This document shows, one piece after another, positions 25,023-40,462 of a stretch of DNA of 64,000 nucleotides. The stretch covers positions 1 through 64,000 of the forward strand of contig NZ_JAIWPR010000025.1 in NCBI RefSeq assembly GCF_021191635.1. The letters are read 5' to 3'. Source of the DNA: Alterluteimonas quercicellularis. Lineage in GTDB: Bacteria > Pseudomonadota > Gammaproteobacteria > Xanthomonadales > Xanthomonadaceae. The translations under genes were made by a program, and so were the position numbers. How positions within the stretch are numbered: the stretch's first letter is position 1; each line of letters begins with the position of its first letter. The notes below the pieces were generated by a model. It ran no database searches, was not told the DNA's origin, and worked only from the letters and a program-made list of their open reading frames with translations.

Positions 25023-26378
25023 CTAGTAGCGGTCGTCGAAGGCGAAGATCGGCTTGCGCGACCGGTAGCGGCCGGCGGTGAAGTCGGGGAACTCCAGCGT
25101 CCTGAAGCCTTCCGCGATGGACTGCTCGGACAGCGGGGTGATCGCGCTCCAGGCGATCGCGTCGTAGATGTCGATCGGCATCGGCGCCTCGGCCTTCAGC
25201 GCCTCGACGAACGCGCGGACCACGAAGTAGTCCATGCCGCCGTGGCCGGCGCCGGCGGCGGCGTCGGCATGGCGTCGCCACAGCGGGTGCTCGTACTCGG
25301 CCGCGTAGGCGGTCAGGGCTTCCCATTCGTGCGCCGGGCTGCGGCCCTCGATGTGCACGGAGCGGTTGAGGTCCATCCACAGGCCGTTCGTGCCCTGCAC
25401 GCGGAAGCCCATCGAGTAGGGGCGCGGCAGCGAGGTGTCGTGCTGCAGCAGGATGGTCTCGCCGTTCTCGCAGGCCAGGGTGGTGGTTACAATGTCGCCC
25501 AGGCGGAACTGCACCCGGGTGCTGGGATGCGTGGTGCCGCCGCTCCTGGCCACGGTGTACTCGTGCAGCCCGCGCGCCTTGCTGGCGAAGCTGTTGATGT
25601 GGGTGAAGCGGTTGCCGCGGTTGATGCCCGCGTACATCGCGCAGGGGCCGATGCCGTGGCTGGGGTAGAGGTCGCCGTTGCGGCGCACGGAATGCTCGGT
25701 GCGCCAGCGCGCCTCGGACCAGCCCTTCGGGCCGAACTCCACGCCGCTGTCGTAGGGCTGCGACGGATCGCCGGAATTGAACTTCACCCCGCGCAGGTCG
25801 TGCTGGTAGCCGCCCTGCAGGTGCACCAGCTCGCCGAACAGGCCGGCGCGGACCATCTGCAGCACGGTCATCACGTCGCGGCGGTAGCAGACGTTCTCCA
25901 GCAGCATGTACGGCGTGCCGGTGCGCTCCTGCGCGGCCAGCACGTCCCAGTGCTCCTGCAGCGTGACCCCGGCCACCACTTCGCAGCCGACCGGGATGCC
26001 GGCCTCCATCGCCTCGATGGCCATCGGCGCGTGCCACTCCCAGGGCGTGGCGACGATCACCCCGTCCAGGCCGCGCTGCTGCAGCAGGCGCCGCCAGGCC
26101 TGCGCGTCGCCGTCCTCGCCGTAGGTGCGGGGCGCGCGCTTGCCGGCCTCGGCGACCATCTCCAGCGCGCGCGCCAGCATGATCGGCTCGACGTCGCACA
26201 GCGCGGCGACCTCCACGTCGTCGCGGCGCAGCAGCTCGCGCAGCAGCACCTGCCCGCGCATGCCGGTGCCGATCATGGCCAGGCGCAGGCGGCGGCGCGC
26301 GGCCCACGCCGGCGCGCCGGGCAGCAGGGCGGACGCGCCCAGCGCGGCACCGGCCAGGAGGAAGTCTCTACGCTGCAT
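25023..26378 (-). CDS. GH109-type glycosidase (alpha-N-acetylgalactosaminidase candidate), Gfo/Idh/MocA fold
   Basis: A 451-aa exported protein. The twin-arginine signal (QRRDFLLAG, then a hydrophobic stretch to ~26) suggests export already folded with bound NAD. The Rossmann motif GTGMRG is at 37-42. The region NGDLYPSHGIGP (Tyr238, His241) followed by NRGNRF corresponds to the catalytic/metal-free active site of GH109 enzymes, which remove terminal alpha-GalNAc by an NAD-dependent oxidation-elimination mechanism. The length fits GH109 better than cytosolic sugar dehydrogenases. It is third in the operon GH31-TonB receptor-GH109, facing GalNAc catabolic genes. A different Gfo/Idh/MocA oxidoreductase activity cannot be excluded from sequence alone. 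Confidence 0.82.
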   Translation of the reverse strand: MQRRDFLLAGAALGASALLPGAPAWAARRRLRLAMIGTGMRGQVLLRELLRRDDVEVAALCDVEPIMLARALEMVAEAGKRAPRTYGEDGDAQAWRRLLQQRGLDGVIVATPWEWHAPMAIEAMEAGIPVGCEVVAGVTLQEHWDVLAAQERTGTPYMLLENVCYRRDVMTVLQMVRAGLFGELVHLQGGYQHDLRGVKFNSGDPSQPYDSGVEFGPKGWSEARWRTEHSVRRNGDLYPSHGIGPCAMYAGINRGNRFTHINSFASKARGLHEYTVARSGGTTHPSTRVQFRLGDIVTTTLACENGETILLQHDTSLPRPYSMGFRVQGTNGLWMDLNRSVHIEGRSPAHEWEALTAYAAEYEHPLWRRHADAAAGAGHGGMDYFVVRAFVEALKAEAPMPIDIYDAIAWSAITPLSEQSIAEGFRTLEFPDFTAGRYRSRKPIFAFDDRY

Positions 26379-26414
26379 CGTGATGCCTCTCGTTCGTGTT
26401 GGAAGCGGGAACGG

Positions 26415-29411
26415 TCAGAACTTGTAGCCGACCGTGAGACTGTAGCTGCGGCCGAAATTGTTCGCGTAGCCGGAGAAGCTCATCCAGTCGTTCGGGTCGT
26501 AGAACGGCAGGCGATCGAACAGGTTCTTGACGGTGAAGCCGACGTTGACCCGGTCGCTGGGCTTCCAGGCCAGGCCCAGGTTGGCCGTCCACCAGGACGG
26601 CGCGCCCTCGCACTGGCCGGGCGCGACCGGCAGGTAGCCGCCGGTGCAGGTCCCGGCGTTGTTGTCCTGCTCGTCGATGCGGTCCCAGGCCCACTTGGTC
26701 GGGCCGACGTAGTTGACGAAGAGGCTGGTGGTGAACTCGCGATAGGTCCAGTCCGCGTTCAGGGTGGCGCGCAGCCTGGGGTTGTTGTAGTAGCCGACCG
26801 TGTTGCCGTAGTACCAGCCGGACTCGTCGTCGAGGTAGGTCTCGTTGCGGCGCGCGATGGTCGCGGCCAGGCCCACGTTCAAGCGGCCCCAGTCGCCCAG
26901 CGGGAAACGGCTGCGCAGGTCGACGTCGAAGCCGTCGACGAGCGTGCGCCCGCGGTTCCTGTACTGGCCGACCACGCTGGACACGTTGCCCACGCTGTAG
27001 GTCGGCAGCGTGCCCGGGCAGGTCACGCCGCTGGCCGGGTCGGCGCACATCGCCGCCAGCGCGGCCAGGTTGGCGAGGTCGGTGTCGGTGATCGGGGAGC
27101 GCGTCATCGACGCGATGTCCTCCTCGTTGCTGTAGTTCGGCGCGGCGATCTCGTTGCGGCGGTAGATGAACCAGTAGTCGGCCGAGACCGACAGCCAGTC
27201 GGCCGGCTCCAGCACGACGCCCAGGGTGGCGATCCTGGCCTTCTCCGGCTCCAGGTCCTGGTTCGGCTCGGTCCTGCGCGCCACGGTGCGGCTGCAGTCG
27301 CTGTTGAGCAGCGTCCGGCCCAGGTCGACGTCGCCAGGCCGGCCCGATTGCAGCAGCAGGTCGGCGATGGCGTTGGTCTCGTTGCAGCGGACGTCGTCGC
27401 GGTAGCCGCCGAGCTGGGCGAACACGCCGCCGGTGCCGGCCTCGGCCAGGCTCGGGGCGCGGAATCCTTCGGAGTAGGTGCCGCGCAGCATCAGTTGCGG
27501 CAACGCCTGGTACTTGAGGCCGATCTTCGGCGCGATGTTGGCGTCGAAGTTCTCGTACTTGTCCACGCGCAGCGCGGCGTCGAGCTCCAGCTTCGCGGTG
27601 ATCGGAGCGACGGCCTCGGCGAACAGCGCGTAGGTGTTGCGCGCGCCGTCGAACCAGGAGCCGCCCTGCTGGGTGATCAGGCCGTTGGCCGCATCCTCGT
27701 TGCCCGGCGTGTGGAAGGTCTCGCGGCTGGCGTTGAAGCCGAACGCCGCGCGCACCTCGCCGGCCGGCAGGGTGTGGATCGGGCCTTCGATCCTGCCGTC
27801 CAGGGTGTGCAGCCGGGTCCACGAGTGGATGTCGAAGGTCGGGTATGCCTCGCGCAGCAGCGCCGCGTTGGCTTCGCTGATCTCGCCGAACCTGTACGCC
27901 GGGTTGTCGGAGATGATCACGCGGCCCGTGCCCGGGTCGACGGTGTACGGGCCGAACGCGCGCTCGAAGCCTTCCAGGTTGACGTTGGTGGTCTGGTAGG
28001 TGACCGAGTGGGTGCCGGCGGTCGCGAAGGCGGTCTCCCAGCTCCAGTCGCCGGCGAGGCCGCGCAGGCCCGCCAGCGCGCGGTAGCTCTTGTCGGTGTT
28101 GCGCTGGCCGAAGTGGCCGTCGCCGACGTCCTGCATGAGGTACTGCAGGCCGACCACGCCGCCCATCAGCGCCTTCAGCTCCGGGCTGGCGTGGTTGTAG
28201 ACGTTGTTCGGCCCCAGGTAGGGGTAGAAGAACTGGTTGACGTTCGTGCCGGTGTTGCGCGAGAACCAGCTGGTCGGGTTGCCGGTGGTGGTGGCGAAGG
28301 CGCGCGGGGTGCCGCCGTTGGCGCGCAGGTCGATGTCGGTATAGGTCGCCTCGGCGAAGGCCTCGGTGGTCTCGCCGATCAGGAAGTGGGCGTTGACGTA
28401 GGCGGTGATGCGCTCGGACTCCGCGCCCGCGTCGACCTCGTTGTTCATCCAGGTCTGCCAGATGCAGCGGGTGCCGGCCGCCTCGGTGATCGCGTTGCGG
28501 CAACCCGGCGCGGCTTCCTGGACGCGCGCGTCGGTGACCGGATCGAACGCGAAGTAGGAGCCCGGGTTGAACACCCCCGGCGCGCTGCCGGTGCCCAGGC
28601 GCAGGTTGTCGACGTAGCTGGGGTTGTTGACGTAGTACTGGGCGGGGCGCTTGTCGTACCAGTCGCTCAGCGGGATCGCGTCGCGCCGGTACAGGTTGAC
28701 CGAGCCGTAGACGTTGTAGCGGTCCTCGTCCAGGTCGCCGAAGCCGCCGGTGAAGCTGGCCTGGTGCTCGCCGTAGGAATCGATGCGCGACGAGCGGTCG
28801 GTGGTGACGCTGAACTCGGCGCCCTGGTACTCGCGCCTGGTGATGACGTTGATCACGCCGGCGACCGCGTCGGTGCCGTACACGGCCGAGGCGCCGTCGG
28901 TCAGCACCTCCATCCGCTCGACCGCGGCGGCGGGGATCGAGTCGATGTTGACGAACTGGGTCTGGAAGCCGGCGGGGGCGCCGTAGTACGACAGGCGCCG
29001 GCCGTTCAGCAGCACCAGCGTGCCCTGCGCGCCGAGGCCGCGCAGGTTGGCCTGCGAAGCGCCGTCGGAGCCGGTGAACAGCGACTTGTAGTCCTGCTGC
29101 GCCGGGCGCGCGGCCGGCAGGTTGTCGAGCACCTGCAGCAGGGTCCGGGCGCCCATGTTCTCGATGTCCTGCCTGCTGACGATCTGCAGCGGCGACGAGG
29201 TCTCCACGTCGGTGCGCTTGATGTTGGATCCCGTCACCTGGATGCGGGCCAGCTCGGTGGTCTTGCCGGGGTCGCCGGTATCGGCCGCCTCAGGTTCGGC
29301 GTCGGCGGTCTGCGCGTGGGCCGAAGCGGTCGCGGCCAGCGCGGCGGCGAGGGCGATCGACAGGGACTTGGCGGACATGATGCGGCGGTGGCGGCAGCGG
29401 GCGGGCAACAT
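26415..29411 (-). CDS. TonB-dependent outer-membrane receptor of the GalNAc locus
   Basis: A 998-aa outer-membrane receptor. The signal peptide is MSAKSLSIALAAALAATASAHA, preceded by 11 residues from the chosen ATG 29411, which has an AGGAG site; ATG 29378 is the alternative. The plug domain begins at IQVTGSNIKRTDVETSSPLQ and contains the ANLRGLGAQGTLVLLNGRRL and DGASAVYGTDAVAGVINVIT blocks. A large beta-barrel follows and the last strand ends in aromatic Phe (SYSLTVGYKF). It is a Xanthomonas-style receptor without a SusD partner. Its place between two glycosidases suggests import of GalNAc-containing oligosaccharides, a role like that of AgaO in Shewanella. It starts 122 bases after the GH31 gene and precedes GH109 by 36. 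Confidence 0.9.
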   Translation of the reverse strand: MLPARCRHRRIMSAKSLSIALAAALAATASAHAQTADAEPEAADTGDPGKTTELARIQVTGSNIKRTDVETSSPLQIVSRQDIENMGARTLLQVLDNLPAARPAQQDYKSLFTGSDGASQANLRGLGAQGTLVLLNGRRLSYYGAPAGFQTQFVNIDSIPAAAVERMEVLTDGASAVYGTDAVAGVINVITRREYQGAEFSVTTDRSSRIDSYGEHQASFTGGFGDLDEDRYNVYGSVNLYRRDAIPLSDWYDKRPAQYYVNNPSYVDNLRLGTGSAPGVFNPGSYFAFDPVTDARVQEAAPGCRNAITEAAGTRCIWQTWMNNEVDAGAESERITAYVNAHFLIGETTEAFAEATYTDIDLRANGGTPRAFATTTGNPTSWFSRNTGTNVNQFFYPYLGPNNVYNHASPELKALMGGVVGLQYLMQDVGDGHFGQRNTDKSYRALAGLRGLAGDWSWETAFATAGTHSVTYQTTNVNLEGFERAFGPYTVDPGTGRVIISDNPAYRFGEISEANAALLREAYPTFDIHSWTRLHTLDGRIEGPIHTLPAGEVRAAFGFNASRETFHTPGNEDAANGLITQQGGSWFDGARNTYALFAEAVAPITAKLELDAALRVDKYENFDANIAPKIGLKYQALPQLMLRGTYSEGFRAPSLAEAGTGGVFAQLGGYRDDVRCNETNAIADLLLQSGRPGDVDLGRTLLNSDCSRTVARRTEPNQDLEPEKARIATLGVVLEPADWLSVSADYWFIYRRNEIAAPNYSNEEDIASMTRSPITDTDLANLAALAAMCADPASGVTCPGTLPTYSVGNVSSVVGQYRNRGRTLVDGFDVDLRSRFPLGDWGRLNVGLAATIARRNETYLDDESGWYYGNTVGYYNNPRLRATLNADWTYREFTTSLFVNYVGPTKWAWDRIDEQDNNAGTCTGGYLPVAPGQCEGAPSWWTANLGLAWKPSDRVNVGFTVKNLFDRLPFYDPNDWMSFSGYANNFGRSYSLTVGYKF

Positions 29412-29533
29412 CGGTGGCTCCTCGGGTTTCGCGGCGCAGGGGGCGCCGCGGGCGGTGAGTGGTCGGCAGGCGGCGGTGCGCGCCCGCGGCACGCGGGCCG
29501 CGGGCGTCGCAGCGGGAAGGAAGCGGGATCGGC

Positions 29534-32500
29534 TCATGGCGCGACGACGGTCGCGGCGTCGCCCTCCTGCCCGACCAGGACCGCGTTGGCCCAGTTGCCG
29601 CAGACCGCATCGGGATCGGCGCCCTGCGCACCCAGCGTGCGCAGGCTCAGGCGCGCCAGGCCGCGGACGTCGATCTCGGGCTTGACCACGGCGGGCGCGC
29701 GGACCAGGCCGCTGTCGTACAGCAGGCGGCCGTCGCCCCAGACCTGGAACCGCAGCCCGCCGGCGGCCCTGCAGCCGTCGTCGATGCCCAGGTCGGCGCG
29801 CAGCAGCCGCCAGCCGCCCTCGAGCCGCAGGTCGATGCGGCCGTCCGCGCCCATCCCGAGCCCGCGGCGGAAGTGCAGGCCGTTCATGCGCATCTCGCCG
29901 CCGCCGCGGGCGCGGTCGCGGGCCACCGTGGCCTGCAGCGCGGGCGGCAGGTCCAGTGCGGACAGGTCGCGCTGCAGCGGCGCGCGCTCGGGCGGCCGGT
30001 GCTCCAGCACGTGGAAGGTGGACAGGGCGATCGGGCGCACGTCGCGCGGCTGCAGCGCATCGTAGGCGCGCGGCGCGCCGTCCTCGGGCGCCGCGTCGTC
30101 GCCGTCGCCGCCGCGCGGGTCGTGCACGCTCAGCGCGCGGAAGCGCAGCAGGCGGCCGGCGCGCGGCGCGAACGCGATGGTCTGCGGGCCTTCCTGCAAA
30201 CGCAGGCGGCCGCTGGCGACCGGCTCGCCCCATTCGCCGTTGCTGTCGGCCAGGTACACCTCGTAGTCGCGGATCTGGCCCTGCTTCCAGTGCGCATCGC
30301 TGCGTGGCGCCAGCTCGATGCCGTCGATCAGGCGGCGCTCGCCGAAGCCCAGGGTCCACTCGTGCGCGCCGGTGCGCACCGCCTGGTTGCGCACGCTGCG
30401 GAACCAGGTGGCGGGGTCGTCGTCGAACGCGTTCTCCAGTGCGTGGCCGGGTTCCTCGGCGGGGCGGGCGACCACCATCACGCCGTCGGGCGGCAGCGCC
30501 CGGCCCAGCGCCGGCGCGTCGGGGAAGGCGTCGTCGGGTGCGCCCGCGGCGGCGGCGAAGCCCAGGCGGAACGCGAGCGGGCGGCGGATGTCGATCTCGC
30601 CGCTGCGCGCGTGCAGGGTGCCCAGGCGCTCGGCCGGGTCGAAGTACCAGCCTTCCGCGCCGGCGTCGAAGGCGGCGCGGCCCGGCAGCTCGGGCAGCGC
30701 GCGGCCGTCCAGTTCCACCGCGTCCGGGGGCGTGCGGGCGAGCACCCGCAGGGCGTAGCGGCGCTGCGGCAACTGGCCCCGGTAATGGCCCGAGACCGCG
30801 CCGATGCGCACCACGACGTCGCCGCTGCCTTCCGCGGGCGCTTCCATCTCGACGGCCTGCTCGGCGTACTCGCCCTCGGCATGCCGGCGGGTCTCGCCGT
30901 CGTCCTCGTACAGCACGTAGCGCGACGCGCCCTGCGGGTACAGGTCGAGGGTCAGCTCGTCCAGCGGCTTCTCGCCGTCGAACAGCATCGCCGGGTACAT
31001 CGGCAGGATCGCGCCGGCGCGCACGAACACCGGCAGCGTGGCCAGGTCCACCCGGCGGTCGATGCGGCGGCCCTGCGCGCCGGCCAGCACCCGGCGGCCG
31101 TCCCAGTAGTCGATCCACAAGCCCGCGGGCAGATGGATGTCGCGGCGCCAGCCGCGGCTGGCGGCCTGGCTGCGGTAGACCGGCGCCACCAGCAGTTCGC
31201 GGCCGAGCAGGAACTGGTCCTTGTAGGCCTCGGTCCAGGCGTGCGGGTCCTGCGGGTGGTCCCACATCAGCCCGCGCACGATCGGCGCGCCGCTGCGCGC
31301 GGCCTCGCGCGCCAGGCCGTACATGTACGGCGTCAGGCGCATCTTGAGCTTGAGGGTGGCGCGGTTGATGCCGCGGTAGGGCTCGTCGAACGCCCACGGG
31401 TGCTTGCGCGCGCTCGCCGACCAGCCGGACATGCCCATCAGCACCGGGGTGAAGCTCTTCCACTGCAGGTCGCGGGTGTAGGTCTCGGCGCTGCCGCCGA
31501 AGATGGCGTCGACGTCGCCGGTGGCGTACGCGATGCCCGACAGGCCCGAGCCGATCAGGGTGGGGACGTGCCAGCGGATGTAGTCCCAGCTCGCGCTCTG
31601 GTCGCCGGTCCAGGCCACGGCGTAGCGCTGGATGCCGGCCCAGCCCATCACCGTCCACAGGAACGGGCGCGCGTCCGAGTTGTCGAGGATGCCGTCGAAC
31701 GCGGACTTGTTGGCGTCCATCGCGAACTGGTAGCCCTTGCCGGTCCAGGCCACGTCGAGCTTCTGCGCGCGGCTGCCGGCGGTGCCGACCTCCCACGCGA
31801 TCTGGTCGACGCCGTCCTCGGTCCACAGCCCGGTGCGGAAGCCGAGCGCCGCCAGCCCCGCCACCACCTCGGGCAGGTCCTCGTAGCCGCAGCCGTAGCC
31901 GTCGTTGGGCAGGATCCAGCCGCCCGGCATGTCGTGCTCGCGGTAGCGGCGGGCGACGCTGTCGACCACGTCGAGGGTGGTGCCGGTGGGGCCGTCGCTC
32001 CAGCCCTCCGGCACGGTGCCCGGCTTGGCGGCGTTGTCGCCGTCGTTGTAGCAGTCGGCGTCGCCGTAGGAGAGCGCCCAGCGCGGCAGCAGGCCGGCGC
32101 GCCCGGTGAGCGCGGTGTAGCGGTCGAGCAGCGCGTGCAGGCCCGGGCCGACGAAGTAGTAGGCGTCGAAGCGGTCTTCCCGGTGCAGCAGCGTCGCCTG
32201 GTCGGCCTGGCGCAGGTCGTAGACGCCGTCGCGCCAGGTGTTGCGCAGCATGCCCCAGCCGCGGGAGCTGAGCAGCATCGGCGCCGGGCTGGGGCGGTCG
32301 CCTTCCTCCCAGCCGCCGGAATAGGAGATCTCCAGCTCGCGGCCCTTGAACTCGAAGCGGCCGTTCTGCTGCCCGCCGCCGAAGAAGCGCTCGTCGGCGT
32401 CGCTGGACAGCACCTGCACGCTCTGCCCATCGTCCAGGTCCAGCGGCTGGCGCTCCTGCCACAGGGGATGCGCCGTGCCGTCCTCAATGCGCGCCAGCGC

Positions 32501-32875
32501 CAGCCGCAGCGGCCGGCGCGCGATGCGCAGCTCCAGCGCCTCGGTGCGGATGCGCACCTCGTCCGCGTCCTCCTCGTAGGCGAATGCCGGCGCCTCGGCC
32601 GGCTGCGGCAGCACGATCGGCGCGGCCTGGTCGCCGGGCGGGCTCAGTTCGCCGTCGCGGCCCGCGCGCACGCGCAGGGTGTCGGCGCGCAGCAGGTCCA
32701 CGCGCATGCGCAGGCCGCGGTCGGTGCGCAGCTCCCAGCCGGGCGTGCCGTCGGGCGAGGCGTCGGCGACGATGCCGACGAGGTCGCCGGCGGGCTCGGC
32801 CAGGGCGGCCGGCGAGCCGGCGAGGCACAGGCACGCCAGCACGGCGGATCGCCAATGGTGCTGTCCGAATCGCAT
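29534..32875 (-). CDS. Secreted GH31 glycosidase with CBM32-like and NPCBM domains
   Basis: A 1113-aa modular glycosidase. A signal peptide (cleavage near PAALA, ~26) precedes an N-terminal beta-sandwich and the GH31 barrel (~240-620). The likely nucleophile is Asp374 in KLDVAWTG and the acid/base is Asp425 in AWTGDQSASW, about 50 residues apart as in GH31. A C-terminal beta domain follows, then an F5/8-type C (CBM32-like) module at ~800-920 and an NPCBM module at ~945-1113. GH31 includes a subfamily of alpha-N-acetylgalactosaminidases, and the operon context favours that activity; alpha-galactosidase or alpha-glucosidase remain possible. I preferred ATG 32875, with a GGGCGGGGGC site and direct entry to the signal peptide, over ATG 32899. 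Confidence 0.87.
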   Translation of the reverse strand: MRFGQHHWRSAVLACLCLAGSPAALAEPAGDLVGIVADASPDGTPGWELRTDRGLRMRVDLLRADTLRVRAGRDGELSPPGDQAAPIVLPQPAEAPAFAYEEDADEVRIRTEALELRIARRPLRLALARIEDGTAHPLWQERQPLDLDDGQSVQVLSSDADERFFGGGQQNGRFEFKGRELEISYSGGWEEGDRPSPAPMLLSSRGWGMLRNTWRDGVYDLRQADQATLLHREDRFDAYYFVGPGLHALLDRYTALTGRAGLLPRWALSYGDADCYNDGDNAAKPGTVPEGWSDGPTGTTLDVVDSVARRYREHDMPGGWILPNDGYGCGYEDLPEVVAGLAALGFRTGLWTEDGVDQIAWEVGTAGSRAQKLDVAWTGKGYQFAMDANKSAFDGILDNSDARPFLWTVMGWAGIQRYAVAWTGDQSASWDYIRWHVPTLIGSGLSGIAYATGDVDAIFGGSAETYTRDLQWKSFTPVLMGMSGWSASARKHPWAFDEPYRGINRATLKLKMRLTPYMYGLAREAARSGAPIVRGLMWDHPQDPHAWTEAYKDQFLLGRELLVAPVYRSQAASRGWRRDIHLPAGLWIDYWDGRRVLAGAQGRRIDRRVDLATLPVFVRAGAILPMYPAMLFDGEKPLDELTLDLYPQGASRYVLYEDDGETRRHAEGEYAEQAVEMEAPAEGSGDVVVRIGAVSGHYRGQLPQRRYALRVLARTPPDAVELDGRALPELPGRAAFDAGAEGWYFDPAERLGTLHARSGEIDIRRPLAFRLGFAAAAGAPDDAFPDAPALGRALPPDGVMVVARPAEEPGHALENAFDDDPATWFRSVRNQAVRTGAHEWTLGFGERRLIDGIELAPRSDAHWKQGQIRDYEVYLADSNGEWGEPVASGRLRLQEGPQTIAFAPRAGRLLRFRALSVHDPRGGDGDDAAPEDGAPRAYDALQPRDVRPIALSTFHVLEHRPPERAPLQRDLSALDLPPALQATVARDRARGGGEMRMNGLHFRRGLGMGADGRIDLRLEGGWRLLRADLGIDDGCRAAGGLRFQVWGDGRLLYDSGLVRAPAVVKPEIDVRGLARLSLRTLGAQGADPDAVCGNWANAVLVGQEGDAATVVAP

Positions 32876-32927
32876 GTCCGAAGCGCCCCCGCCCTTCATC
32901 GGATCGGTCTGGAGACCGGTGCGACCG

Positions 32928-32957
32928 ACTCTAGGGCCGGCTGTCGAAGAAAGTCAA
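32928..32957 (-). promoter_or_regulatory. Promoter of the GH31-receptor-GH109 operon
   Basis: On the minus strand TTGACT (32957-32952) and TAGAGT (32933-32928) are separated by 18 bases, 5/6 and 4/6 to consensus. The -35 box overlaps a CTTTC box (32953-32949), so a repressor bound there would block RNA polymerase. Confidence 0.5.
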
Positions 32958-33143: not shown

Positions 33144-33161
33144 GATTTGTGTTTCGATATT
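33132..33161 (+). promoter_or_regulatory. Candidate promoter of the agaS operon
   Basis: TTGGTA (33132-33137) and GATATT (33156-33161) are spaced by 18 bases, each 4/6 to consensus. A CTTTC box lies inside the spacer. The start codon of agaS is 53 bases downstream. A second -35-like TTGACT at 33161-33166 has no good -10 partner. Confidence 0.35.
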
Positions 33162-33214
33162 TGACTTTTCGCAAGTTCGCGCGCATCGTGCGCCGACGCA
33201 ACCGGAACTCCCGA

Positions 33215-34372
33215 ATGGACGCCTCCCTGCGCAACCCCGCGCCCCTCGCGCCGCCGCCGGGCGGCCACCACACCGCCGAAGAGATCGCGCAGCAGCCGGC
33301 GCTCTGGAGCGCCCTGGCCGATGCGCTGGACGGCGCGCGCGCGCAGATCGACGGCTTCCTCGGCGACTGGCTGGCGCGGCCCGACCACCGGGTGCTGTTC
33401 GCGGGGGCGGGCAGTTCGGGCTTCCTCGCCGAACTGGTGGCCGATGCGGTCCAGGCGCAGTGGCCGGCCGACGTGCGCGCGCTCCACACCACCCGCCTGC
33501 TGACGCACCCCGCGCTCTACCTGCAGCGCGAGCGTCCCACCCTGCTGGTGTCGTTCGGCCGCAGCGGGTCGAGCCCGGAAAGCGTGGCCGCGGTGGACCT
33601 GGTGCGCGAGCGGGTGGCGGTCCCGCGCTTCCTCGACATCACCTGCAACCCGGACGGCGCGCTGGCGCGGCGCGGCGCCGGCCGGGACGACACCCTGACC
33701 CTGCTGATGCCGCCGGCCAGTTGCGACCGCGGCTTCGCCATGACCAGCAGCCTGACCTGCATGCAGCTGGCCGCGCTGGCGGCGTTCGACCGCCAGCCGT
33801 GGCCGCAGCGGCTGGCGCGCCTGCGCCAGGTGGCCGAGTGCGGCCGGCGCGCGCTGGCCGAGTGGGACGACGGCATCGCCGCGCTGGCGGCCGGCGACGC
33901 GTACTCGCGCGTGGTCTACCTCGGCAGTGGGCCGCTGGAGGCGCTGGCGCGCGAGTCCGCGCTCAAGCTGCTGGAACTGAGCGCCGGCCGCGTGATCGCG
34001 CTGGCCGACACCCCGCTGGGCTTCCGCCACGGCCCCAAGTCGACCTTGAACGGGGACGCGCTGGTGGTGGTACTGCGCAGCGCCGACCCGCTGGCGCGCC
34101 TGTACGAGCGCGACCTGCTGGACGAACTGCGGCGCGAGGGCGTGGCCGGCCGCGTGCTGTCGGTGGGCCCGCGGCGGGACGACGGCGAGGACGACTTCGC
34201 GCTCGCCGTCCCCGCGCTGCCGGACCCGTGGCTCGCGCCCGTGTGGCTGACGCTGGCGCAGCGCTACGCCCTGCGCCGCTCCGCGGCGCTCGGCTTGAGC
34301 CCGGACGATCCGTTCCCGGACGGCACCGTCAACCGGGTCGTGCAGGGCGTCACCCTGCATCCGGGGCGCTGA
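33215..34372 (+). CDS. agaS: AgaS, galactosamine-6-phosphate deaminase/isomerase (SIS family)
   Basis: A 385-aa cytosolic protein with two SIS sugar-phosphate domains. The first contains FAGAGSSGFLAELV and the Ser-rich phosphate loop SFGRSGSSPES; the second contains LGSGPLEALARESALKLLELS and FRHGPKS. The length equals that of E. coli AgaS (~384). AgaS converts galactosamine-6-phosphate to tagatose-6-phosphate and ammonia, the third step of GalNAc catabolism. It heads the rightward operon; the ROK kinase gene follows 11 bases downstream. GlmS-like isomerase relatives share the fold, but the neighbouring genes make AgaS the best reading. Confidence 0.9.
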   Translation: MDASLRNPAPLAPPPGGHHTAEEIAQQPALWSALADALDGARAQIDGFLGDWLARPDHRVLFAGAGSSGFLAELVADAVQAQWPADVRALHTTRLLTHPALYLQRERPTLLVSFGRSGSSPESVAAVDLVRERVAVPRFLDITCNPDGALARRGAGRDDTLTLLMPPASCDRGFAMTSSLTCMQLAALAAFDRQPWPQRLARLRQVAECGRRALAEWDDGIAALAAGDAYSRVVYLGSGPLEALARESALKLLELSAGRVIALADTPLGFRHGPKSTLNGDALVVVLRSADPLARLYERDLLDELRREGVAGRVLSVGPRRDDGEDDFALAVPALPDPWLAPVWLTLAQRYALRRSAALGLSPDDPFPDGTVNRVVQGVTLHPGR

Positions 34373-34383: not shown

Positions 34384-35307
34384 ATGCAGGCCTGCTACGG
34401 CATCGACGTCGGCGGCAGCAAGATCGAGCTGGTCGCGTTCGACGGCGCCATGGCCGAGCGCCATCGCCAGCGGGTGGAGACGCCGGCGCAGGACTATCCC
34501 GCGTTCCTCGACGCCGTCGAGGCGCTGGTGCGCGGTGCCGATGCGGCGCTCGGGCGGGCCGCCGAGGCCGTCGGCATCGGGCTGCCGGGCGTGGTCGAGC
34601 ATGACGGCGGGCGCCAGCTCAGCGCCAACGTGCCCGCGCTGACCGGCCGCACGGTGCGCGAGGACCTGCGGCGGCGGCTGGGGCGAACGCTGCGCTTCGG
34701 CAACGATCTGCAGTGCTTCGCGCTGTCGGAGGCCAACGGTGGCGCCGCCGACGGCTACCCCAGCATGTTCGGCGCCATCCTCGGCACCGGCGTCGGCGGC
34801 GGCTACTGCCTCGGCGGCCGCCTGGTGGCCGGCCACAACGGCATCGCCGGCGAATGGGGGCACTGGAGCGTGCCGGCCGAGCTGCTGGCCCGCCACGGGC
34901 TGCCGCTGCTGGACTGCCCCTGCGGCCTGCGCGGCTGCGTGGAGCGCTACGTCTCCGGCGGCGGCCTGTCGCTCATCCATCGCCACGCCGGCGGCGACGG
35001 CGCAGCGGCGCCGGAGATCGTCGCGCGCGCCGAGGCGGGCGACGCCGTCTCCGAGGCCGCGCTCGGCGTCCACCGCGAGTTCCTCGGCCACACGCTGGCG
35101 GCGCTGATCATGGCGATGGACCCGCACGTGATCGTGCTGGGCGGCGGGCTGTCGAAGACGCGGCGGCTCTACCGCGACCTGCCCGGCGCCATCGCCCCGT
35201 TCCTGTTCGCGGGCGTCCGCGTGCCGCCGATCGTGCCGCCGCGCTTCGGCGACGCCGGCGGGGCGCGCGGCGCCGCGCTGCTGTCGCGCCTGCACGCGCC
35301 GTCGTGA
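34384..35307 (+). CDS. agaK: ROK-family N-acetylgalactosamine kinase (AgaK/NagK-like)
   Basis: A 307-aa cytosolic sugar kinase of the ROK family. The ATP-binding loop GIDVGGSKIEL is at 6-16, the catalytic Asp is in FGNDLQCFALSE, the ILGTGVGGGY loop and the GEWGH substrate histidine are present, and the zinc-binding CPCGLRGCVERY motif is intact. Overall it resembles E. coli NagK. In this locus it would phosphorylate imported GalNAc at O6 to feed AgaA and AgaS, since no PTS genes are visible. The specific substrate (GalNAc rather than GlcNAc) is inferred from the neighbours. Confidence 0.87.
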   Translation: MQACYGIDVGGSKIELVAFDGAMAERHRQRVETPAQDYPAFLDAVEALVRGADAALGRAAEAVGIGLPGVVEHDGGRQLSANVPALTGRTVREDLRRRLGRTLRFGNDLQCFALSEANGGAADGYPSMFGAILGTGVGGGYCLGGRLVAGHNGIAGEWGHWSVPAELLARHGLPLLDCPCGLRGCVERYVSGGGLSLIHRHAGGDGAAAPEIVARAEAGDAVSEAALGVHREFLGHTLAALIMAMDPHVIVLGGGLSKTRRLYRDLPGAIAPFLFAGVRVPPIVPPRFGDAGGARGAALLSRLHAPS

Positions 35308-35335: not shown

Positions 35336-36664
35336 GTGTCCCTCGTCCAGTCCCTGATCGCCACCCATCGCAGCGGGGAGCGCGTCGGCCTCTACAGCGT
35401 CTGCTCCAGCAACGAGCAGGTGCTGCTGGCGGCGATGGACGTCGCGCAGCGCTACGGCACCCCGCTGCTGATCGAGGCCACCTCCAACCAGGTCGACCAG
35501 TTCGGCGGCTACACCGGCATGGACCCGGCCGGCTTCCGCGCCTGGGTCGAGGCGCTGGCGCGCGACCACGGCTTTCCCGCCGAGCGCCTGGTCCTGGGTG
35601 GCGACCACCTGGGCCCCAACGCGTGGCAGGCGCTGCCGGCCGGGGAGGCCATGGCGCACGCGCGCGACCTGGTCGCGGCCTACGCCGCGGCCGGCTTCCA
35701 CAAGATCCACCTGGACTGCAGCATGGCCTGCGCGGGCGATCCCGATCCGCTGCCGGACGAGCTGGTCGCCGCGCGTTCCGCGGAACTGGCCGCGGTCGCC
35801 GAGCGGGCCGCGGCCGCCGCCGGCCTGCCGCCGCCGGTCTACGTCATCGGCACCGAGGTCCCGGTGCCCGGCGGCGAGACCTCGCTCGAGGGCGGCCTGG
35901 CCGTCACCGCGCCCGCCGCCGCCGCGCGCACGCTGGAGATCCACCGGCAGGCGTTCGCCGCGCCGGGGCTGGCGCCGGCCTGGGAGCGGGTGATCGCGCT
36001 GGTGGTGCAGCCGGGCGTGGATTTCGACCACACCGGCGTGCACGCCTACGATCCGGCCGCGGCCGCCGCGCTGTCGGACTTCGTGGCCGCGCAACCGCGC
36101 ATCGTGTTCGAGGCGCATTCCACCGACTACCAGACCGAGGCCGCGCTGCACGCGCTGGTGCGCGACCACTACGCGATCCTCAAGGTCGGCCCCGCGGCCA
36201 CCTTCGCCTACCGCGAGGCGCTGTTCGCGCTGGCCGCGATCGAGGACGAGCTGCTGCCCGAGGGCGAGGCGCGCTCGCGCCTGCCCGACGTGCTGGACCG
36301 CTGCATGGTCGACAAGCCCAGGCACTGGCAGCGCCACTACGCCGGCGATGCGCACGCGCTGCGCCTGCTGCGCCGCTACGCGCTCAGCGACCGCTGCCGC
36401 TACTACTGGGGCGAGCCGGAGGTGAAGGCGGCGGTCGAGCGCCTGGTCGCCAACCTGCGCCGGCACCCGCCGCCGCCGTCGCTGCTCAGCCAGTTCCTGC
36501 CCGAGCAGCAGCGCGAGGTGCAGGCCGGGCGGCTGCCGGCCGATCCGCTGGCGCTGGTCCGCCACCGCATCGCGCTGCGCCTGTCCGAGTACGCGCGCGC
36601 CTGCGCGCGCAACGCCGCCGCCACCGGCCGCGGCGGGGACGCGGCGCCCGCCGCGCCGCACTAA
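35336..36664 (+). CDS. kbaZ: KbaZ/GatZ family: tagatose-1,6-bisphosphate aldolase non-catalytic subunit
   Basis: A 442-aa protein of the D-tagatose-bisphosphate aldolase class II non-catalytic subunit family. Characteristic blocks are GLYSVCSSNEQVLLAAM, LIEATSNQVDQFGGYTGM, LGGDHLGPNAWQ, HKIHLDCSMACAGD and FEAHSTDYQ. It starts at GTG 35336 with a GGAG site. In E. coli this subunit stabilises the catalytic KbaY aldolase; comparative work has also proposed that AgaZ proteins might be tagatose-6-phosphate kinases. No KbaY-like catalytic subunit and no PfkB-type tagatose kinase are encoded in this window, so the lower pathway must be completed elsewhere or by this protein. Confidence 0.9.
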   Translation: MSLVQSLIATHRSGERVGLYSVCSSNEQVLLAAMDVAQRYGTPLLIEATSNQVDQFGGYTGMDPAGFRAWVEALARDHGFPAERLVLGGDHLGPNAWQALPAGEAMAHARDLVAAYAAAGFHKIHLDCSMACAGDPDPLPDELVAARSAELAAVAERAAAAAGLPPPVYVIGTEVPVPGGETSLEGGLAVTAPAAAARTLEIHRQAFAAPGLAPAWERVIALVVQPGVDFDHTGVHAYDPAAAAALSDFVAAQPRIVFEAHSTDYQTEAALHALVRDHYAILKVGPAATFAYREALFALAAIEDELLPEGEARSRLPDVLDRCMVDKPRHWQRHYAGDAHALRLLRRYALSDRCRYYWGEPEVKAAVERLVANLRRHPPPPSLLSQFLPEQQREVQAGRLPADPLALVRHRIALRLSEYARACARNAAATGRGGDAAPAAPH

Positions 36665-36699
36665 GCTCGTCGGCATCCGACGCATCCAGGCAGCCCGAC

Positions 36700-37476
36700 A
36701 TGCGCAATACCCGACACCGCCGCCAGCAGATCCTCCAGCGCCTGATCCAGCACGGCAGCGTGCAGGTGAGCGAGCTGGCGGAGGACTTCGAGGTCTCCTC
36801 GGTCACCATCCGCGCCGACCTCAACCACATCGAGTCGCAGGGCCTGGCCACCCGCACCCACGGCGGCGCCACCCTGGTGCGCACGCCGCCGCAGGAGCAG
36901 GGCATCCACGAGAAGGATGCGCTGAACCTGCCGCTGAAGGAGCTGATCGGCGCGCGCGCGGCGCAGCTGGTGAAGCCGGGCGAGAACATCATCATCGATT
37001 CGGGCAGCACCACCATGATGCTCGCGCGCCACCTGCGGCTGCGCCGCGACGTGACGGTGATGACCAACGGCCTGAACATCGCCTGGGAACTGGCCAACGC
37101 CGACGGCATCGACGTGCTGCTGGCCGGCGGCATGCTGCGCAAGCAGTCGCTGTCGCTGCAGGGCAGTCAGGCGGAAGCCAGCCTGGCCTCGTACAGCTTC
37201 GACACCCTGTTCCTGGGCGTGGACGGGCTGGACCTGCAGTTCGGCCTGACCACCCACGACGAGGCCGAGGCGCGCCTCAACCACCGCATGGTCGAGCGCG
37301 CGCGCCGCATCGTGGTGCTGACCGATGCGTCCAAGTTCGGCTGCGTGAGCCTGCACCGCATCGCGCGCCTCGACCAGATCCACACCGTGATCACCGACGA
37401 CGGCATCGGCGCCGAGTACCGCGAGGGCCTGGAGCGGCTGGGCGTCGAAGTGATCGTCGCCGAGCCGCTGCGTTGA
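36700..37476 (+). CDS. agaR: AgaR, DeoR-family transcriptional repressor
   Basis: A 258-aa DeoR-family regulator. The N-terminal winged helix-turn-helix (residues ~5-58: RRQQILQRLIQHGSVQVSEL, then VSSVTIRADLNHIE) is followed by the sugar-phosphate-sensing domain with DSGSTTMMLARHL and the C-terminal FLGVDGLDLQFGLTTHDEAE and DASKFG blocks. DeoR proteins usually release DNA on binding a phosphorylated sugar intermediate; here GalNAc-6-P, GalN-6-P or tagatose-phosphate is likely. The gene is the fourth in the operon it probably controls, so it would be autoregulated through the CTTTC boxes at 32949-33143. Its stop overlaps the deacetylase start. Confidence 0.9.
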   Translation: MRNTRHRRQQILQRLIQHGSVQVSELAEDFEVSSVTIRADLNHIESQGLATRTHGGATLVRTPPQEQGIHEKDALNLPLKELIGARAAQLVKPGENIIIDSGSTTMMLARHLRLRRDVTVMTNGLNIAWELANADGIDVLLAGGMLRKQSLSLQGSQAEASLASYSFDTLFLGVDGLDLQFGLTTHDEAEARLNHRMVERARRIVVLTDASKFGCVSLHRIARLDQIHTVITDDGIGAEYREGLERLGVEVIVAEPLR

Positions 37477-38642
37477 CCGCGCCCCGCATCCTCGAAGGCC
37501 GGATCCTGTCCGCCGGCGGCTGGGTGCGGGGCACGCTGGCGTTCGACCGGCGCGTGCGCGCGGTCCGCGACACCGCCGCGCCCGGAGCGGCGGACGACGC
37601 CGCGCCGCTGATCCTGCCCGGCTTCGTCGACCTGCACGTCCACGGCGGCTACGGCGTGGACATCATGGAAGGCGGCGATGCCGCCCGCCGGGTCGCGCGG
37701 GCGCACGCGCGCCACGGCACCACGGCCCTGCTCGGCACCACCATGACCGCGCCGGAATCCGACATCGAGCGCGCGCTGCACGGCCTGGCGTCCGCGATCG
37801 GCGAGCGCGCCCCCGGGGCGGCGCGCGTGCTCGGCGTGCACCTGGAAGGTCCCTACATCAGCATGGAGCGGCTGGGCGCGCAGCCGCCGCTGGCGGTCGA
37901 GGCCACGCTGGCGCAGGTGCGGCGACTGCACGCCATCGCGCCCATCAAGGTGCTGACGCTGGCGCCGGAGGTCGGCCGCCACACGGCGCTGATCCCGCCA
38001 CTGGAGGCCATGGGCATCCGCGTCCAGCTCGGGCACAGCGCCGGCGACTACGAGCACGGCGTCGCCGCGCTGCGCGCCGGCGCCTCGGGCTTCACCCACC
38101 TGTTCAACGGCATGAGCGGGACCGACCACCGGCGGCCCGGGATCGCCGCGGCGGCGCTCGCCCACGCCGAGTACGCCGAGCTGATCCCCGACCTGCAGCA
38201 CGTGCACCCGGGCGTCGTCCGCGCCGCGCTGCGCGCGATCCCGCGGCTGTACTGCGTCACCGACGCAACCTCGGCCACCGGCATGCCCGACGGCGAGTAC
38301 GCGCTGGGCGCGCAGCGCGTGCACAAGTGCCTGGGCTGCGTGCGCCTGGCCGACGGCAGCTCGCTGGCCGGCAGCGTGCTGACCATGGACCAGGCGCTGC
38401 GCAACCTGGTCTCGCTGGGGCTGGACCTGCGCGACGCCTCGGATCGCGTGTCGCGCTACCCGGCCGACTACCTCGGCCTGGCCGACCGCGGGCGTCTGCA
38501 ACCCGGCGCCTGGGCGGACGTGGTGGTGCTGGACGCCGACCTGCGGGTGCGCCGGGTGTTCGTGGAAGGCGAGGAGGTGGCCGCGGCGGCGCCCGCCGCC
38601 ACGCCCGCGCCGCCGCCGATCGCCGCAGGATCGTCCCGGTGA
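37473..38642 (+). CDS. agaA: N-acetylgalactosamine-6-phosphate deacetylase (AgaA/NagA family)
   Basis: A 389-aa amidohydrolase-superfamily deacetylase. Metal and substrate motifs are DLHVHGG, HLEGPYIS, LGHSAGDY, THLFNGMSG, the HVHP block and the catalytic Asp in VTDATSATG. It hydrolyses the N-acetyl group of GalNAc-6-phosphate (or GlcNAc-6-phosphate), the step between the kinase and AgaS. It begins with TTG 37473, sharing four bases with the agaR stop (TTGA), and ends overlapping the MFS transporter start (GTGA). The sequence fits the NagA-related type of deacetylase. The Ala/Pro-rich tail is not conserved. Confidence 0.88.
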   Translation: MTAPRILEGRILSAGGWVRGTLAFDRRVRAVRDTAAPGAADDAAPLILPGFVDLHVHGGYGVDIMEGGDAARRVARAHARHGTTALLGTTMTAPESDIERALHGLASAIGERAPGAARVLGVHLEGPYISMERLGAQPPLAVEATLAQVRRLHAIAPIKVLTLAPEVGRHTALIPPLEAMGIRVQLGHSAGDYEHGVAALRAGASGFTHLFNGMSGTDHRRPGIAAAALAHAEYAELIPDLQHVHPGVVRAALRAIPRLYCVTDATSATGMPDGEYALGAQRVHKCLGCVRLADGSSLAGSVLTMDQALRNLVSLGLDLRDASDRVSRYPADYLGLADRGRLQPGAWADVVVLDADLRVRRVFVEGEEVAAAAPAATPAPPPIAAGSSR

Positions 38643-40462
38643 GCGGGATCGCCGCCGCGTCGCCGGCCGCGCGCGCCGCACACGTCTGGCACGCCCGCTA
38701 CGTGCTGTTCATCGCCGGCCTGGGCGGGCTGCTCTACGGCATCGACATCGGCATCATCGCCGGCGCGCTGCCGTACCTGGAAGCCACCGCGGTGGCGGAC
38801 TGGCACCTGACCCGCCAGCAGCTCGGCTTCGTGGTCGCGGCGGTGCTGCTGGGCAGCGTGCTGTCCTCGCTGTTCGCCGGCGCGATCGCCGAGTCGATCG
38901 GCCGGCGCGCCACGCTGTTCCTGGCCGGCGTGCTGTTCGCGCTCAGCATCCCGATGATCGCGCTGGCCTCCGGCTACGCGCCGCTGCTGACCGGGCGCCT
39001 GCTGCAGGGCGTGAGCGGCGGCCTGATCGGCGTGGTGGTGCCGCTGTACCTGGCCGAGGTGCTGCCGCCGCAGCGGCGCGGGCGCGGCACCGCGATGTTC
39101 CAGCTGCTGCTGACGATCGGGCTGGTGCTGGCGGCGGTGATCGGCCTCTACCACGCGCATGCGGTGGACGCCACCGCGGCCGAGGCGAGCGGCCTGCCTG
39201 CGGCGGAGCAGCAGGCGATCCTGTTCGCCGCCAAGGACCGCGCCTGGCGCACGATCTTCTGGAGCTGCCTGCTGCCCGGCCTGGTCTTCAGTGCCGGCGT
39301 GCTGCTGCTCGGCGAGTCGCCGCGCTGGCTGGTGCGGCGCGGCCGCGTGGACCGCGCCCGCGCCGCCCTGCGCAGGACGATGCCGGAGGACGAGGCGCTG
39401 GCGACGCTTGCGCGGATGCTGGCGCCGGCAGTCGACCCCGCCGGCCGCGCCGGGGCGCGCGACCGCCTGCTGAGCCGGCGCTACGTCTGGCCGTTCCTGC
39501 TGGCGTGCGTGATCCTCGCCTGCACCCAGGCCACCGGCATCAATTCGGTCCTCGCCTACGCGGTGAACATCCTCAACCAGGCCGGCCTGCCCGGCGCGGC
39601 GGCGAACGGGGCCGACGTGGCCATCAAGCTGCTCAACGTCGCGATGACGGTGGTGGCGCTGGTGCTGGTGGACCGCAAGGGTCGCAAGTTCCTGCTGATG
39701 GTGGGCAGCGGCGGCATCGTGCTGTCGCTGCTGGCCGCGGCGCTGCTGTTCCTGCAGGCCGAGCGCGGCCAGCGCGACGCGCGCGCGGAGCTGCAGGCGG
39801 CGGTGCAGGGCGATGCGCTGTCGCTGACGCTGGACGCGGCGGCATGGCGGCGCCTGGGCGTCGAACCCGGCGCACAGCCGCAGCAGCTGACCATCGCCTA
39901 TGGCTACGGAGAGTTCCGCGACGTGCGCGCGCTGCGCAGCGACGCGCCGGGCGCGACGGTGCTGTCGATCCGCCGCGAGGACAGCGTGCGCGCCGACAGC
40001 GTGATCGGCGCCTTCTTCCGCGGCCTGGGCCTGAACCCGTTCCCGGACCCGGCGAGCGCGGCCGGCGCGCCCCTGGTCCTCGAGCGCGCCAGCCTGGGCG
40101 AGGTGCCGTCGCGCGCCTACGGCTGGGCCGTGGCGGGGTGCATCCTGCTGTTCGTCGCGTTCTTCGCGGTCGGGCCGGGCGTCTGCGTCTGGCTGGCGCT
40201 GTCGGAGCTGATGCCCACGCGCATCCGCGCCAACGGCATGAGCATCGCGCTGCTGATCAACCAGTTCGTCTCCACCGCGATCGCGGCGATGTTCCTGCCC
40301 ATGGTGGGCCGCCACGGCTACGCCAGCATGTTCTTCTTCTGGGCCGGCTGCACGCTGGTCTACTTCCTGGTGGCGGCGTTCCTGCTGCCGGAGACCAAGG
40401 GCAAGTCGCTGGAGCAGATCGAGGCGCACTTCCGCCGGGCGTCCCCTGGGCGCGGAGCATGA
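38639..40462 (+). CDS. MFS sugar transporter with large periplasmic insert (candidate GalNAc permease)
   Basis: A 607-aa inner-membrane transporter of the sugar-porter (MFS) family with twelve spans. Family motifs include GLLYGIDIG in TM1, SIGRR in loop 2-3, ESPRWLV after TM6, VDRKGRK in loop 8-9 and PETKGKSLEQIE after TM12. It is ~130 residues longer than usual. A ~118-residue soluble segment (about 375-492) separates TM9 from TM10 and a smaller insert (~172-203) lies between TM5 and TM6; both loops face the periplasm. It starts at GTG 38639, coupled to agaA. As last gene of the operon it should import free GalNAc for the kinase, a role like AgaP in Shewanella. Confidence 0.87.
   Translation: MSGIAAASPAARAAHVWHARYVLFIAGLGGLLYGIDIGIIAGALPYLEATAVADWHLTRQQLGFVVAAVLLGSVLSSLFAGAIAESIGRRATLFLAGVLFALSIPMIALASGYAPLLTGRLLQGVSGGLIGVVVPLYLAEVLPPQRRGRGTAMFQLLLTIGLVLAAVIGLYHAHAVDATAAEASGLPAAEQQAILFAAKDRAWRTIFWSCLLPGLVFSAGVLLLGESPRWLVRRGRVDRARAALRRTMPEDEALATLARMLAPAVDPAGRAGARDRLLSRRYVWPFLLACVILACTQATGINSVLAYAVNILNQAGLPGAAANGADVAIKLLNVAMTVVALVLVDRKGRKFLLMVGSGGIVLSLLAAALLFLQAERGQRDARAELQAAVQGDALSLTLDAAAWRRLGVEPGAQPQQLTIAYGYGEFRDVRALRSDAPGATVLSIRREDSVRADSVIGAFFRGLGLNPFPDPASAAGAPLVLERASLGEVPSRAYGWAVAGCILLFVAFFAVGPGVCVWLALSELMPTRIRANGMSIALLINQFVSTAIAAMFLPMVGRHGYASMFFFWAGCTLVYFLVAAFLLPETKGKSLEQIEAHFRRASPGRGA

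What the first reader, a model, noticed from the sequence alone, without database searches (positions are those of the whole stretch)
25023..40462. A complete-looking GalNAc acquisition and catabolism locus in a xanthomonad
Seen: TonB receptor, two secreted glycosidases, MFS permease, ROK kinase, deacetylase, AgaS and KbaZ plus an AgaR-type repressor in two divergent operons. Known: AgaK, AgaA and AgaS are the validated GalNAc steps in Shewanella. Inference: the organism scavenges alpha-GalNAc from mucin-like, blood-group-like or bacterial glycans, with periplasmic release and no PTS.
Basis: partly seen in the sequence, partly recalled or inferred. Interest (0 to 1): 0.72.

Follow-up and report, generated by a model that had tools for sequence, protein, structure and literature searches.

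The report
Aldolase-free GalNAc scavenging cassette
A bacterium of the Xanthomonas family carries a nine-gene cassette, kept in the same order in many relatives, that is predicted to cut the sugar GalNAc off glycans, import it, and likely feed it into central metabolism through one stand-alone enzyme (KbaZ) instead of the textbook kinase-plus-aldolase route, whose dedicated genes were not found in its genome.

Summary
The order recurs in relatives: of 80 KbaZ loci fetched (Xanthomonadaceae and kin, Burkholderiales), 76 hold AgaS-ROK-KbaZ in line, and all 67 with GH31 and AgaS have GH31 divergent; KbaZ is in 31 of 149 sampled family genomes. A GalNAc pathway is well supported. (1) "Complete" holds only if KbaZ is the last enzyme. 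Annotation makes it a helper of tagatose-bisphosphate aldolase, but this genome has no class II aldolase, no LacD and no LacC-like kinase, and none of the 31 KbaZ genomes has a class II aldolase over cut-off. E. coli GatZ/KbaZ act as tagatose-6-P/fructose-6-P epimerases (PMC11907403); the seven residues named there are invariant in 81 of 81 sequences. I infer a stand-alone 4-epimerase. (2) The permease carries a conserved insert of about 120 residues between TM9 and TM10, predicted periplasmic, without Pfam or confident PDB match. The source of alpha-GalNAc is open. New variant of a known kind.

The parts
25023..26378 (-). GH109 alpha-N-acetylgalactosaminidase homologue, 451 aa, twin-arginine leader
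   Evidence: PF21252 E 3e-80, PF10518 TAT signal 20.9 bits (cut-off 22.7); PDB 2ixa alpha-N-acetylgalactosaminidase E 1e-145
26415..29378 (-). TonB-dependent receptor, 987 aa (start 29378, or 29411)
   Evidence: PF00593 and PF07715; candidate starts
29534..32899 (-). GH31 alpha-N-acetylgalactosaminidase homologue with F5/8C and NPCBM modules, 1121 aa; signal peptide by eye only
   Evidence: Best PDB matches 6m76/7f7r/7f7q (two of them titled GH31 alpha-N-acetylgalactosaminidase), E 5e-108 to 6e-107; D382 and D433 invariant in 67 of 67
32928..32957 (-). sigma-70-like promoter of the GH31 operon, TTGACT-18-TAGAGT
   Evidence: 1 found, 0.2 expected; motif CTCTAGG-N12-24-GTCAA in 59 of 77 AgaS upstream regions (window included) and nowhere else in the same loci
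33152..33171 (+). likely AgaR operator overlapping the -35 box of the agaS operon
   Evidence: TTTCG-N2-8-TTTGAC-N-TTTCG in 56 of 77 AgaS upstream regions (window included), none elsewhere in the same loci
33215..34372 (+). AgaS, predicted galactosamine-6-phosphate deaminase/isomerase
   Evidence: TIGR02815 382.7 bits, below cut-off 529.2; 41.5% identity to E. coli AgaS; PDB 3c3j E 1e-78
34384..35307 (+). ROK-family hexosamine kinase, predicted GalNAc 6-kinase
   Evidence: PF00480; best NCBIfam model GlcNAc kinase NF009835, 287 bits, cut-off 380; PDB GlcNAc kinase 7p7i E 7e-73
35336..36664 (+). KbaZ/GatZ-like, predicted stand-alone tagatose-6-phosphate 4-epimerase
   Evidence: TIGR02810 over cut-off; the narrower KbaZ and GatZ models are below theirs; 55% identity to E. 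coli KbaZ; seven active-site residues conserved; no aldolase partner
36700..37476 (+). AgaR, DeoR-family repressor
   Evidence: NF040755 333.7 bits, cut-off 260
37473..38642 (+). NagA/AgaA-like hexosamine-6-phosphate deacetylase
   Evidence: TIGR00221 just under cut-off; a second NagA, over cut-off, lies elsewhere in the genome
38639..40462 (+). sugar-porter MFS permease, 607 aa, predicted GalNAc importer
39755..40117 (+). inserted domain of the permease (residues 373-493) between TM9 and TM10

Best explanation
The locus is predicted to be a PTS-free alpha-GalNAc scavenging cassette whose last step is likely a stand-alone KbaZ acting as tagatose-6-phosphate 4-epimerase. Steps: a TonB receptor brings in alpha-GalNAc glycans (inferred); GH31 and the Tat-leader GH109 release GalNAc in the periplasm (predicted from homology); the sugar porter imports it (predicted); the ROK kinase makes GalNAc-6-P, the NagA-like enzyme deacetylates it, AgaS deaminates and isomerises it to tagatose-6-P (predicted from families with members assayed elsewhere); [quoted passage not shown] AgaR represses both divergent promoters from operators at the -35 boxes (inferred from conserved motifs).
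For: Nine intact genes with matching families. Of 80 fetched KbaZ loci: ROK 79, AgaR 78, AgaS 76, GH31 67, NagA 63, TBDR 62, MFS 57, GH109 49; AgaS-ROK-KbaZ collinear in 76; GH31 divergent in 67 of 67 with both; KbaY or GatY in 0 of 80 (tblastn, E<=1e-8; 13 loci are under 19 kb, so counts are lower bounds). Own genome: class II aldolase PF01116 none, LacD none, eight PfkB-type hits of which none matches a LacC model at E<=1e-10. Of 149 sampled family genomes 31 carry KbaZ and 3 carry PF01116 over cut-off, without overlap. The seven GatZ residues of PMC11907403 are invariant in 81 of 81. That paper (parts 1-3 of 6) reports, in living E. coli, that of the candidate deletions only gatZ abolished tagatose formation, and that GatZ or KbaZ with the phosphatase HxpA restored it while FbaA, GatY or KbaY with HxpA did not. 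GH31 is nearest to solved GH31 alpha-GalNAcases; the position that reads D, N and A in 6m76, 7f7r and 7f7q is D382 here. Promoter motifs occur only upstream of AgaS.
Against: No assay or growth test exists for this organism. In E. coli the aga pathway is described as running through tagatose-1,6-bisphosphate and KbaY, with KbaZ as a subunit for activity and stability (PMC3668189 passages). In PMC11907403 gatZ alone, without the phosphatase, did not restore tagatose; the work was in cells, and the active-site model is computed, not tested by mutation. This genome holds one PFK and one class I FBA, which could by side activity carry tagatose-6-P without KbaZ. Five of the eight PfkB-type proteins score below the cut-off of their best model, so their substrates are open and a tagatose-6-P kinase among them is not excluded. 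The E. coli AgaR consensus (recalled) has 0 matches with up to 3 mismatches in the window. AgaS, NagA and the ROK kinase score below their curated cut-offs. KbaZ is patchy: 31 of 149 family genomes. 12 of 67 loci of at least 19 kb lack both NagA and MFS within the stretch, so those two are not obligate members.
Confidence: 0.66

Rival explanations
1. KbaZ is a tagatose-6-phosphate kinase (the older AgaZ assignment) and a promiscuous class I aldolase cleaves the product.
For: AgaZ was proposed as a Tag6P kinase (PMC12118421, passage); the two PDB relatives are titled putative or probable tagatose 6-phosphate kinase; a class I FBA is present.
Against: KbaZ matches only GatZ/KbaZ family models, no kinase family, in Pfam and NCBIfam at E<=0.001; its residues match an aldolase-like zinc site; PMC11907403 reports epimerase behaviour of E. 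coli GatZ and KbaZ and relates them to class II aldolases.
Confidence: 0.08
2. Tagatose-6-P is phosphorylated by the housekeeping PFK or an uncharacterised PfkB-type kinase and cleaved by class I FBA; KbaZ is a helper or relic.
For: One PFK, one class I FBA and five PfkB-type proteins of open specificity in the genome.
Against: 76 of 80 loci chosen by KbaZ keep it collinear with AgaS and ROK, and all seven catalytic residues are fixed in 81 of 81, which a relic would not need. No LacC match and no LacD.
Confidence: 0.13
3. The locus serves another galactose-type amino sugar or derivative, for instance free galactosamine or beta-linked GalNAc, and the glycosidases act on other linkages.
For: ROK and deacetylase specificity cannot be read from sequence; the kinase's best named model is GlcNAc kinase.
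Against: AgaR and AgaS types, GH31 and GH109 nearest to solved alpha-GalNAcases, and a second NagA, over cut-off, elsewhere in the genome that could serve GlcNAc.
Confidence: 0.1

Closest known systems
Shewanella PTS-independent GalNAc pathway (AgaK, AgaA-II, AgaS, AgaP, Omp-Aga)
   Same: Outer-membrane receptor, permease, kinase, deacetylase and AgaS are listed instead of a PTS (PMC2996990 table passage)
   Different: Not compared gene by gene: the JBC 2012 paper is not held. Whether Shewanella has KbaY or these glycosidases in the locus was not checked.
E. coli aga/kba cluster
   Same: KbaZ 55%, AgaS 41.5%, AgaR 50% identity
   Different: The E. coli K-12 cluster holds PTS genes and KbaY with KbaZ; here neither is in the locus, and no class II aldolase was found in the genome.
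B. theta BT4240-50 locus (GH2, GH109, MFS, GalNAc kinase) plus BT3169-GH31
   Same: GH109 and GH31 alpha-GalNAcases, periplasmic release, MFS in the locus (PMC11992087 passages)
   Different: There the GH31 is encoded at another locus and import is SusCD-type; here both glycosidases share an operon with a TonB receptor.
Agrobacterium/Sinorhizobium galactitol pathways with a GatZ-type 4-epimerase
   Same: Tagatose-6-P to fructose-6-P by a GatZ-like protein, as cited in PMC11907403
   Different: Entry sugar is galactitol, not GalNAc; one primary paper was not held, the others were not read.
Sugar porter MFS (XylE, GLUT3)
   Different: About 120 extra residues between TM9 and TM10. Some sources name such proteins myo-inositol transporter-like 13; from memory, some eukaryotic inositol transporters and class III GLUTs also enlarge loop 9, which was not tested.

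Membership tests
GalNAc (aga) catabolic pathway, PTS-independent type | sugar kinase, hexosamine-6-P deacetylase and AgaS-type isomerase in one operon with AgaR | tested here: met
   AgaR over cut-off, AgaS 41.5% to E. coli AgaS; AgaS, NagA and ROK below their curated cut-offs
GalNAc (aga) catabolic pathway, PTS-independent type | enzyme activities on GalNAc, GalNAc-6-P, GalN-6-P | not testable with these tools
   needs assays
Class II tagatose-bisphosphate aldolase, non-catalytic subunit (name of TIGR02810) | sequence family | tested here: met
   595 bits, cut-off 568.8
Class II tagatose-bisphosphate aldolase, non-catalytic subunit (name of TIGR02810) | a KbaY/GatY catalytic partner in the genome | tested here: not met
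   PF01116 none in own genome, control rings in 11 of 14; none over cut-off in any of 31 KbaZ genomes, two of which have sub-cut-off fragments of 20-22 bits
Tagatose-6-phosphate 4-epimerase (GatZ/KbaZ type) | metal and substrate residues C20, E44, D87, H88, E171, H257, K279 of GatZ | tested here: met
   C23, E47, D90, H91, E174, H261, K283; 81 of 81 identical
Tagatose-6-phosphate 4-epimerase (GatZ/KbaZ type) | epimerase activity | not testable with these tools
   needs purified protein
LacC/LacD tagatose-6-P route | LacC kinase and LacD aldolase | tested here: not met
   LacD none, control Lactococcus rings; none of 8 PfkB-type proteins matches a LacC model at E<=1e-10; hexose-kinase model TIGR03168 at most 59 bits, cut-off 216
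GH31 alpha-N-acetylgalactosaminidase | closest solved relative and catalytic pair | tested here: met
   E 5e-108 to 6m76, next other GH31 E 6e-50; D382, D433 in 67 of 67
GH31 alpha-N-acetylgalactosaminidase | activity on alpha-GalNAc | not testable with these tools
   needs assay
GH109 | GH109 C-terminal domain on a Gfo/Idh/MocA fold | tested here: met
   PF21252 and PF01408 over cut-off; 2ixa E 1e-145
Sugar porter MFS | TIGR00879 and the 12-helix fold | tested here: met
AgaR operator of E. coli type | match to TTTCRTTTYRYTTTYKTT (recalled) | tested here: inconclusive
   0 in window at up to 3 mismatches; 52 of 76 relative loci have one within 420 bases upstream of AgaS, against 9 hits elsewhere in those loci; E. 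coli control 10 against 0.63 expected

The most novel reading that the evidence does not exclude
Bacteria of two orders run GalNAc catabolism without ever making tagatose-1,6-bisphosphate: KbaZ, long filed as a helper subunit, is the terminal enzyme, and the dedicated importer has built in a periplasmic domain of unrecognised fold that receives GalNAc from the neighbouring glycosidases.
Probability: 0.25. Interest if true: 0.72.

Novelty: new variant of a known kind. Interest (0 to 1): 0.52.

Why it matters
NCBIfam's TIGR02810 names KbaZ proteins as a non-catalytic aldolase subunit. A lineage that keeps KbaZ, with its active site, in genomes where no class II aldolase was found is a natural experiment saying the protein has its own catalysis, and it puts that catalysis in a physiological pathway rather than in an engineered tagatose strain. 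It also predicts that GalNAc carbon enters at fructose-6-P. The permease insert offers a compact system to ask whether a sugar porter can carry its own periplasmic capture or docking domain.

Tried and rejected
Fungal galactosaminogalactan or bacterial Pel as substrate: GH114 is in 4 of 149 family genomes and only 1 of these (G114) is among the 31 KbaZ carriers; none in the own genome. No support, not excluded. Mucin specialism: peptidase M60 in 0 of 149; sialidases and other mucin enzymes were not searched. A paper on Verticillium galactosaminogalactan (find only) does not mention the four genus or group names asked for.

AgaR regulon outside the locus: the recalled E. coli consensus gave 4 matches in the own genome with up to 3 mismatches, as many as its reversed control; two lie about 3 kb from the second NagA, which I do not interpret.

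Extra genes in flanks of relatives: a home-made gene finder gave 506 unmatched frames, many of the printed ones spurious by eye; five were scanned (GH3, GH92, two TonB-receptor-like, one POT transporter) and showed no common substrate clue.

Papers: judged by titles and abstract starts in the listings, several of them capped below the number of papers found, none describes this cassette in xanthomonads or a KbaZ-epimerase GalNAc pathway. That is one open library, so the absence is weak.

Full report
What is there. The finding's coordinates hold nine intact genes in two divergent operons. Minus strand: GH109 (25023-26378), TonB receptor (26415-29378), GH31 (29534-32899). Plus strand: AgaS (33215-34372), ROK kinase (34384-35307), KbaZ (35336-36664), AgaR (36700-37476), NagA-like deacetylase (37473-38642), sugar-porter permease (38639-40462). 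Spacings of 11, 28, 35, -4 and -4 bases on the plus strand fit one transcript. Families are those; KbaZ, AgaR and the sugar porter exceed NCBIfam cut-offs (TIGR02810, NF040755, TIGR00879), while AgaS, NagA and every kinase model fall below theirs, and the narrower KbaZ and GatZ models (NF012002, NF011626) are also below theirs.

It is a conserved but patchy cassette. By record title they come from Pseudoxanthomonas, Luteimonas, Lysobacter, Stenotrophomonas, Vulcaniibacterium and Dokdonella, from MAGs, and from Burkholderiales (Paucibacter, Massilia, Duganella, Rugamonas, Pelomonas, Pseudoduganella); one species, Massilia eburnea, gave two loci. Of the 80, ROK is found in 79, AgaR 78, AgaS 76, GH31 67, NagA 63, TonB receptor 62, permease 57, GH109 49. 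Of the 12 loci that I took for Burkholderiales, 12 have NagA, 11 the permease, 8 GH31, 6 the receptor and 5 GH109. 13 loci are shorter than 19 kb and GH109 often lies at the edge of the fetched stretch, so these are lower bounds. AgaS-ROK-KbaZ are collinear in 76, and GH31 is divergent upstream of AgaS in all 67 loci that have both. Twelve of the 67 loci of at least 19 kb lack both NagA and the permease. Because loci were chosen by KbaZ, its own count says nothing. Within the family, 31 of 149 sampled genomes have KbaZ.

The missing step. GalNAc catabolism yields tagatose-6-P after AgaS. In E. coli this goes on to tagatose-1,6-bisphosphate and KbaY cleavage, KbaZ being described as a subunit for activity and stability (PMC3668189, passages). 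A review still lists KbaZ as aldolase subunit or proposed kinase (PMC12118421, passages). The window's genome (4.5 Mb, 109 contigs, 100% complete, 4.4% contamination) has no class II aldolase (PF01116; the search rings in 11 of 14 controls) and no LacD. Its eight PfkB-type hits look most like two ribokinases, a fructokinase, a KDG kinase, a nucleoside kinase, a pyridoxal kinase and two HMP-P kinases; only the last three exceed a cut-off, so the substrates of the other five are open, but none matches a LacC model. Across 149 family genomes, 31 have KbaZ and three have PF01116 over cut-off, none of them among the 31. Two KbaZ genomes (G016, G091) have 20-22 bit fragments below cut-off, which I do not count. 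E. coli KbaY or GatY found nothing in the 80 loci (tblastn, E<=1e-8).

Why an epimerase. PMC11907403 (parts 1-3 of 6 read) reports that in E. coli, of the candidate genes deleted, only gatZ abolished tagatose formation (fbaA could not be deleted); gatZ alone did not restore it, but GatZ or KbaZ with the phosphatase HxpA did, while KbaY, GatY or FbaA with HxpA did not. It proposes a zinc retro-aldol/aldol site with residues that set the family apart from aldolases. All seven are present in the window's KbaZ and in 81 of 81 sequences including it; E. coli KbaZ has them too. The window's KbaZ is 55% identical to E. coli KbaZ. Hence the simplest reading: KbaZ turns tagatose-6-P into fructose-6-P. 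This step is inferred. The genome does have a PFK and a class I FBA, so a side-activity route is not excluded.

Glycosidases. The GH31 is far closer to solved GH31 alpha-N-acetylgalactosaminidases (6m76, 7f7r, 7f7q; E 5e-108 to 6e-107) than to any other solved GH31 (next E 6e-50). The position that differs between these three PDB sequences (D, N, A) is D382 here; it and D433 are invariant in 67 of 67. The GH109 matches 2ixa at E 1e-145 and has a twin-arginine leader (TAT model 20.9 bits, cut-off 22.7); since GH109 enzymes carry NAD (recalled), export of a folded protein makes sense (inference). In B. theta a GH109 preferred blood group A and also cut Tn, while a GH31 acted only on the desialylated mucin of three substrates tested (PMC11992087, passages), so the pair here may be complementary, not redundant.

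Regulation. The divergent region has a sigma-70-like promoter for GH31 and a TTTCG-TTTGAC-TTTCG block in front of AgaS. These motifs occur in 59 and 56 of 77 AgaS upstream regions (window included) and nowhere else in the same loci; the patterns were drawn from these sequences, so the contrast shows position-specific conservation, not an independent discovery. The recalled E. coli AgaR consensus does not match in the window, nor near AgaS in 24 of 76 relatives; it does in 52 of 76.

Verdict. The contribution here is the aldolase-free ending, supported by absence data and residue conservation, and the permease insert.

Noticed in passing
window 24376-24470 (-): ARAGORN calls a tRNA-Pro (ggg) of 95 bases inside the HlyD-type frame 23329-24684 on the same strand; probably a false call.
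   Followed up: no
window 20078-24684 and 40551-42262: The cassette sits between two transporter sets: two MacB/FtsX-type proteins with an ABC ATPase and HlyD protein on the left, and an ABC ATPase on the right, followed by what looks by eye like an ABC-2 permease.
   Followed up: partly
window 42266-44203: Amidohydrolase fused to a CIA30-like domain.
   Followed up: no
L008 and L009 (own genome, contigs C3 and C109): Two HMP-P kinases with identical scores on two contigs, suggesting a duplicated stretch in the assembly.
   Followed up: no
L030: A record titled Bacillus subtilis SK7B5 holds all nine genes with identities to the window like those of the Stenotrophomonas loci; probably a mislabelled or contaminated record.
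   Followed up: no
L013, L041, L064: Variants without a GH31 match in which the TonB receptor gene lies next to AgaS.
   Followed up: partly
own genome C37:33309-33425 and C37:36549-37673: Two weak matches to the AgaR consensus about 3 kb from a second NagA gene; the reversed control pattern gave as many hits in the genome.
   Followed up: no
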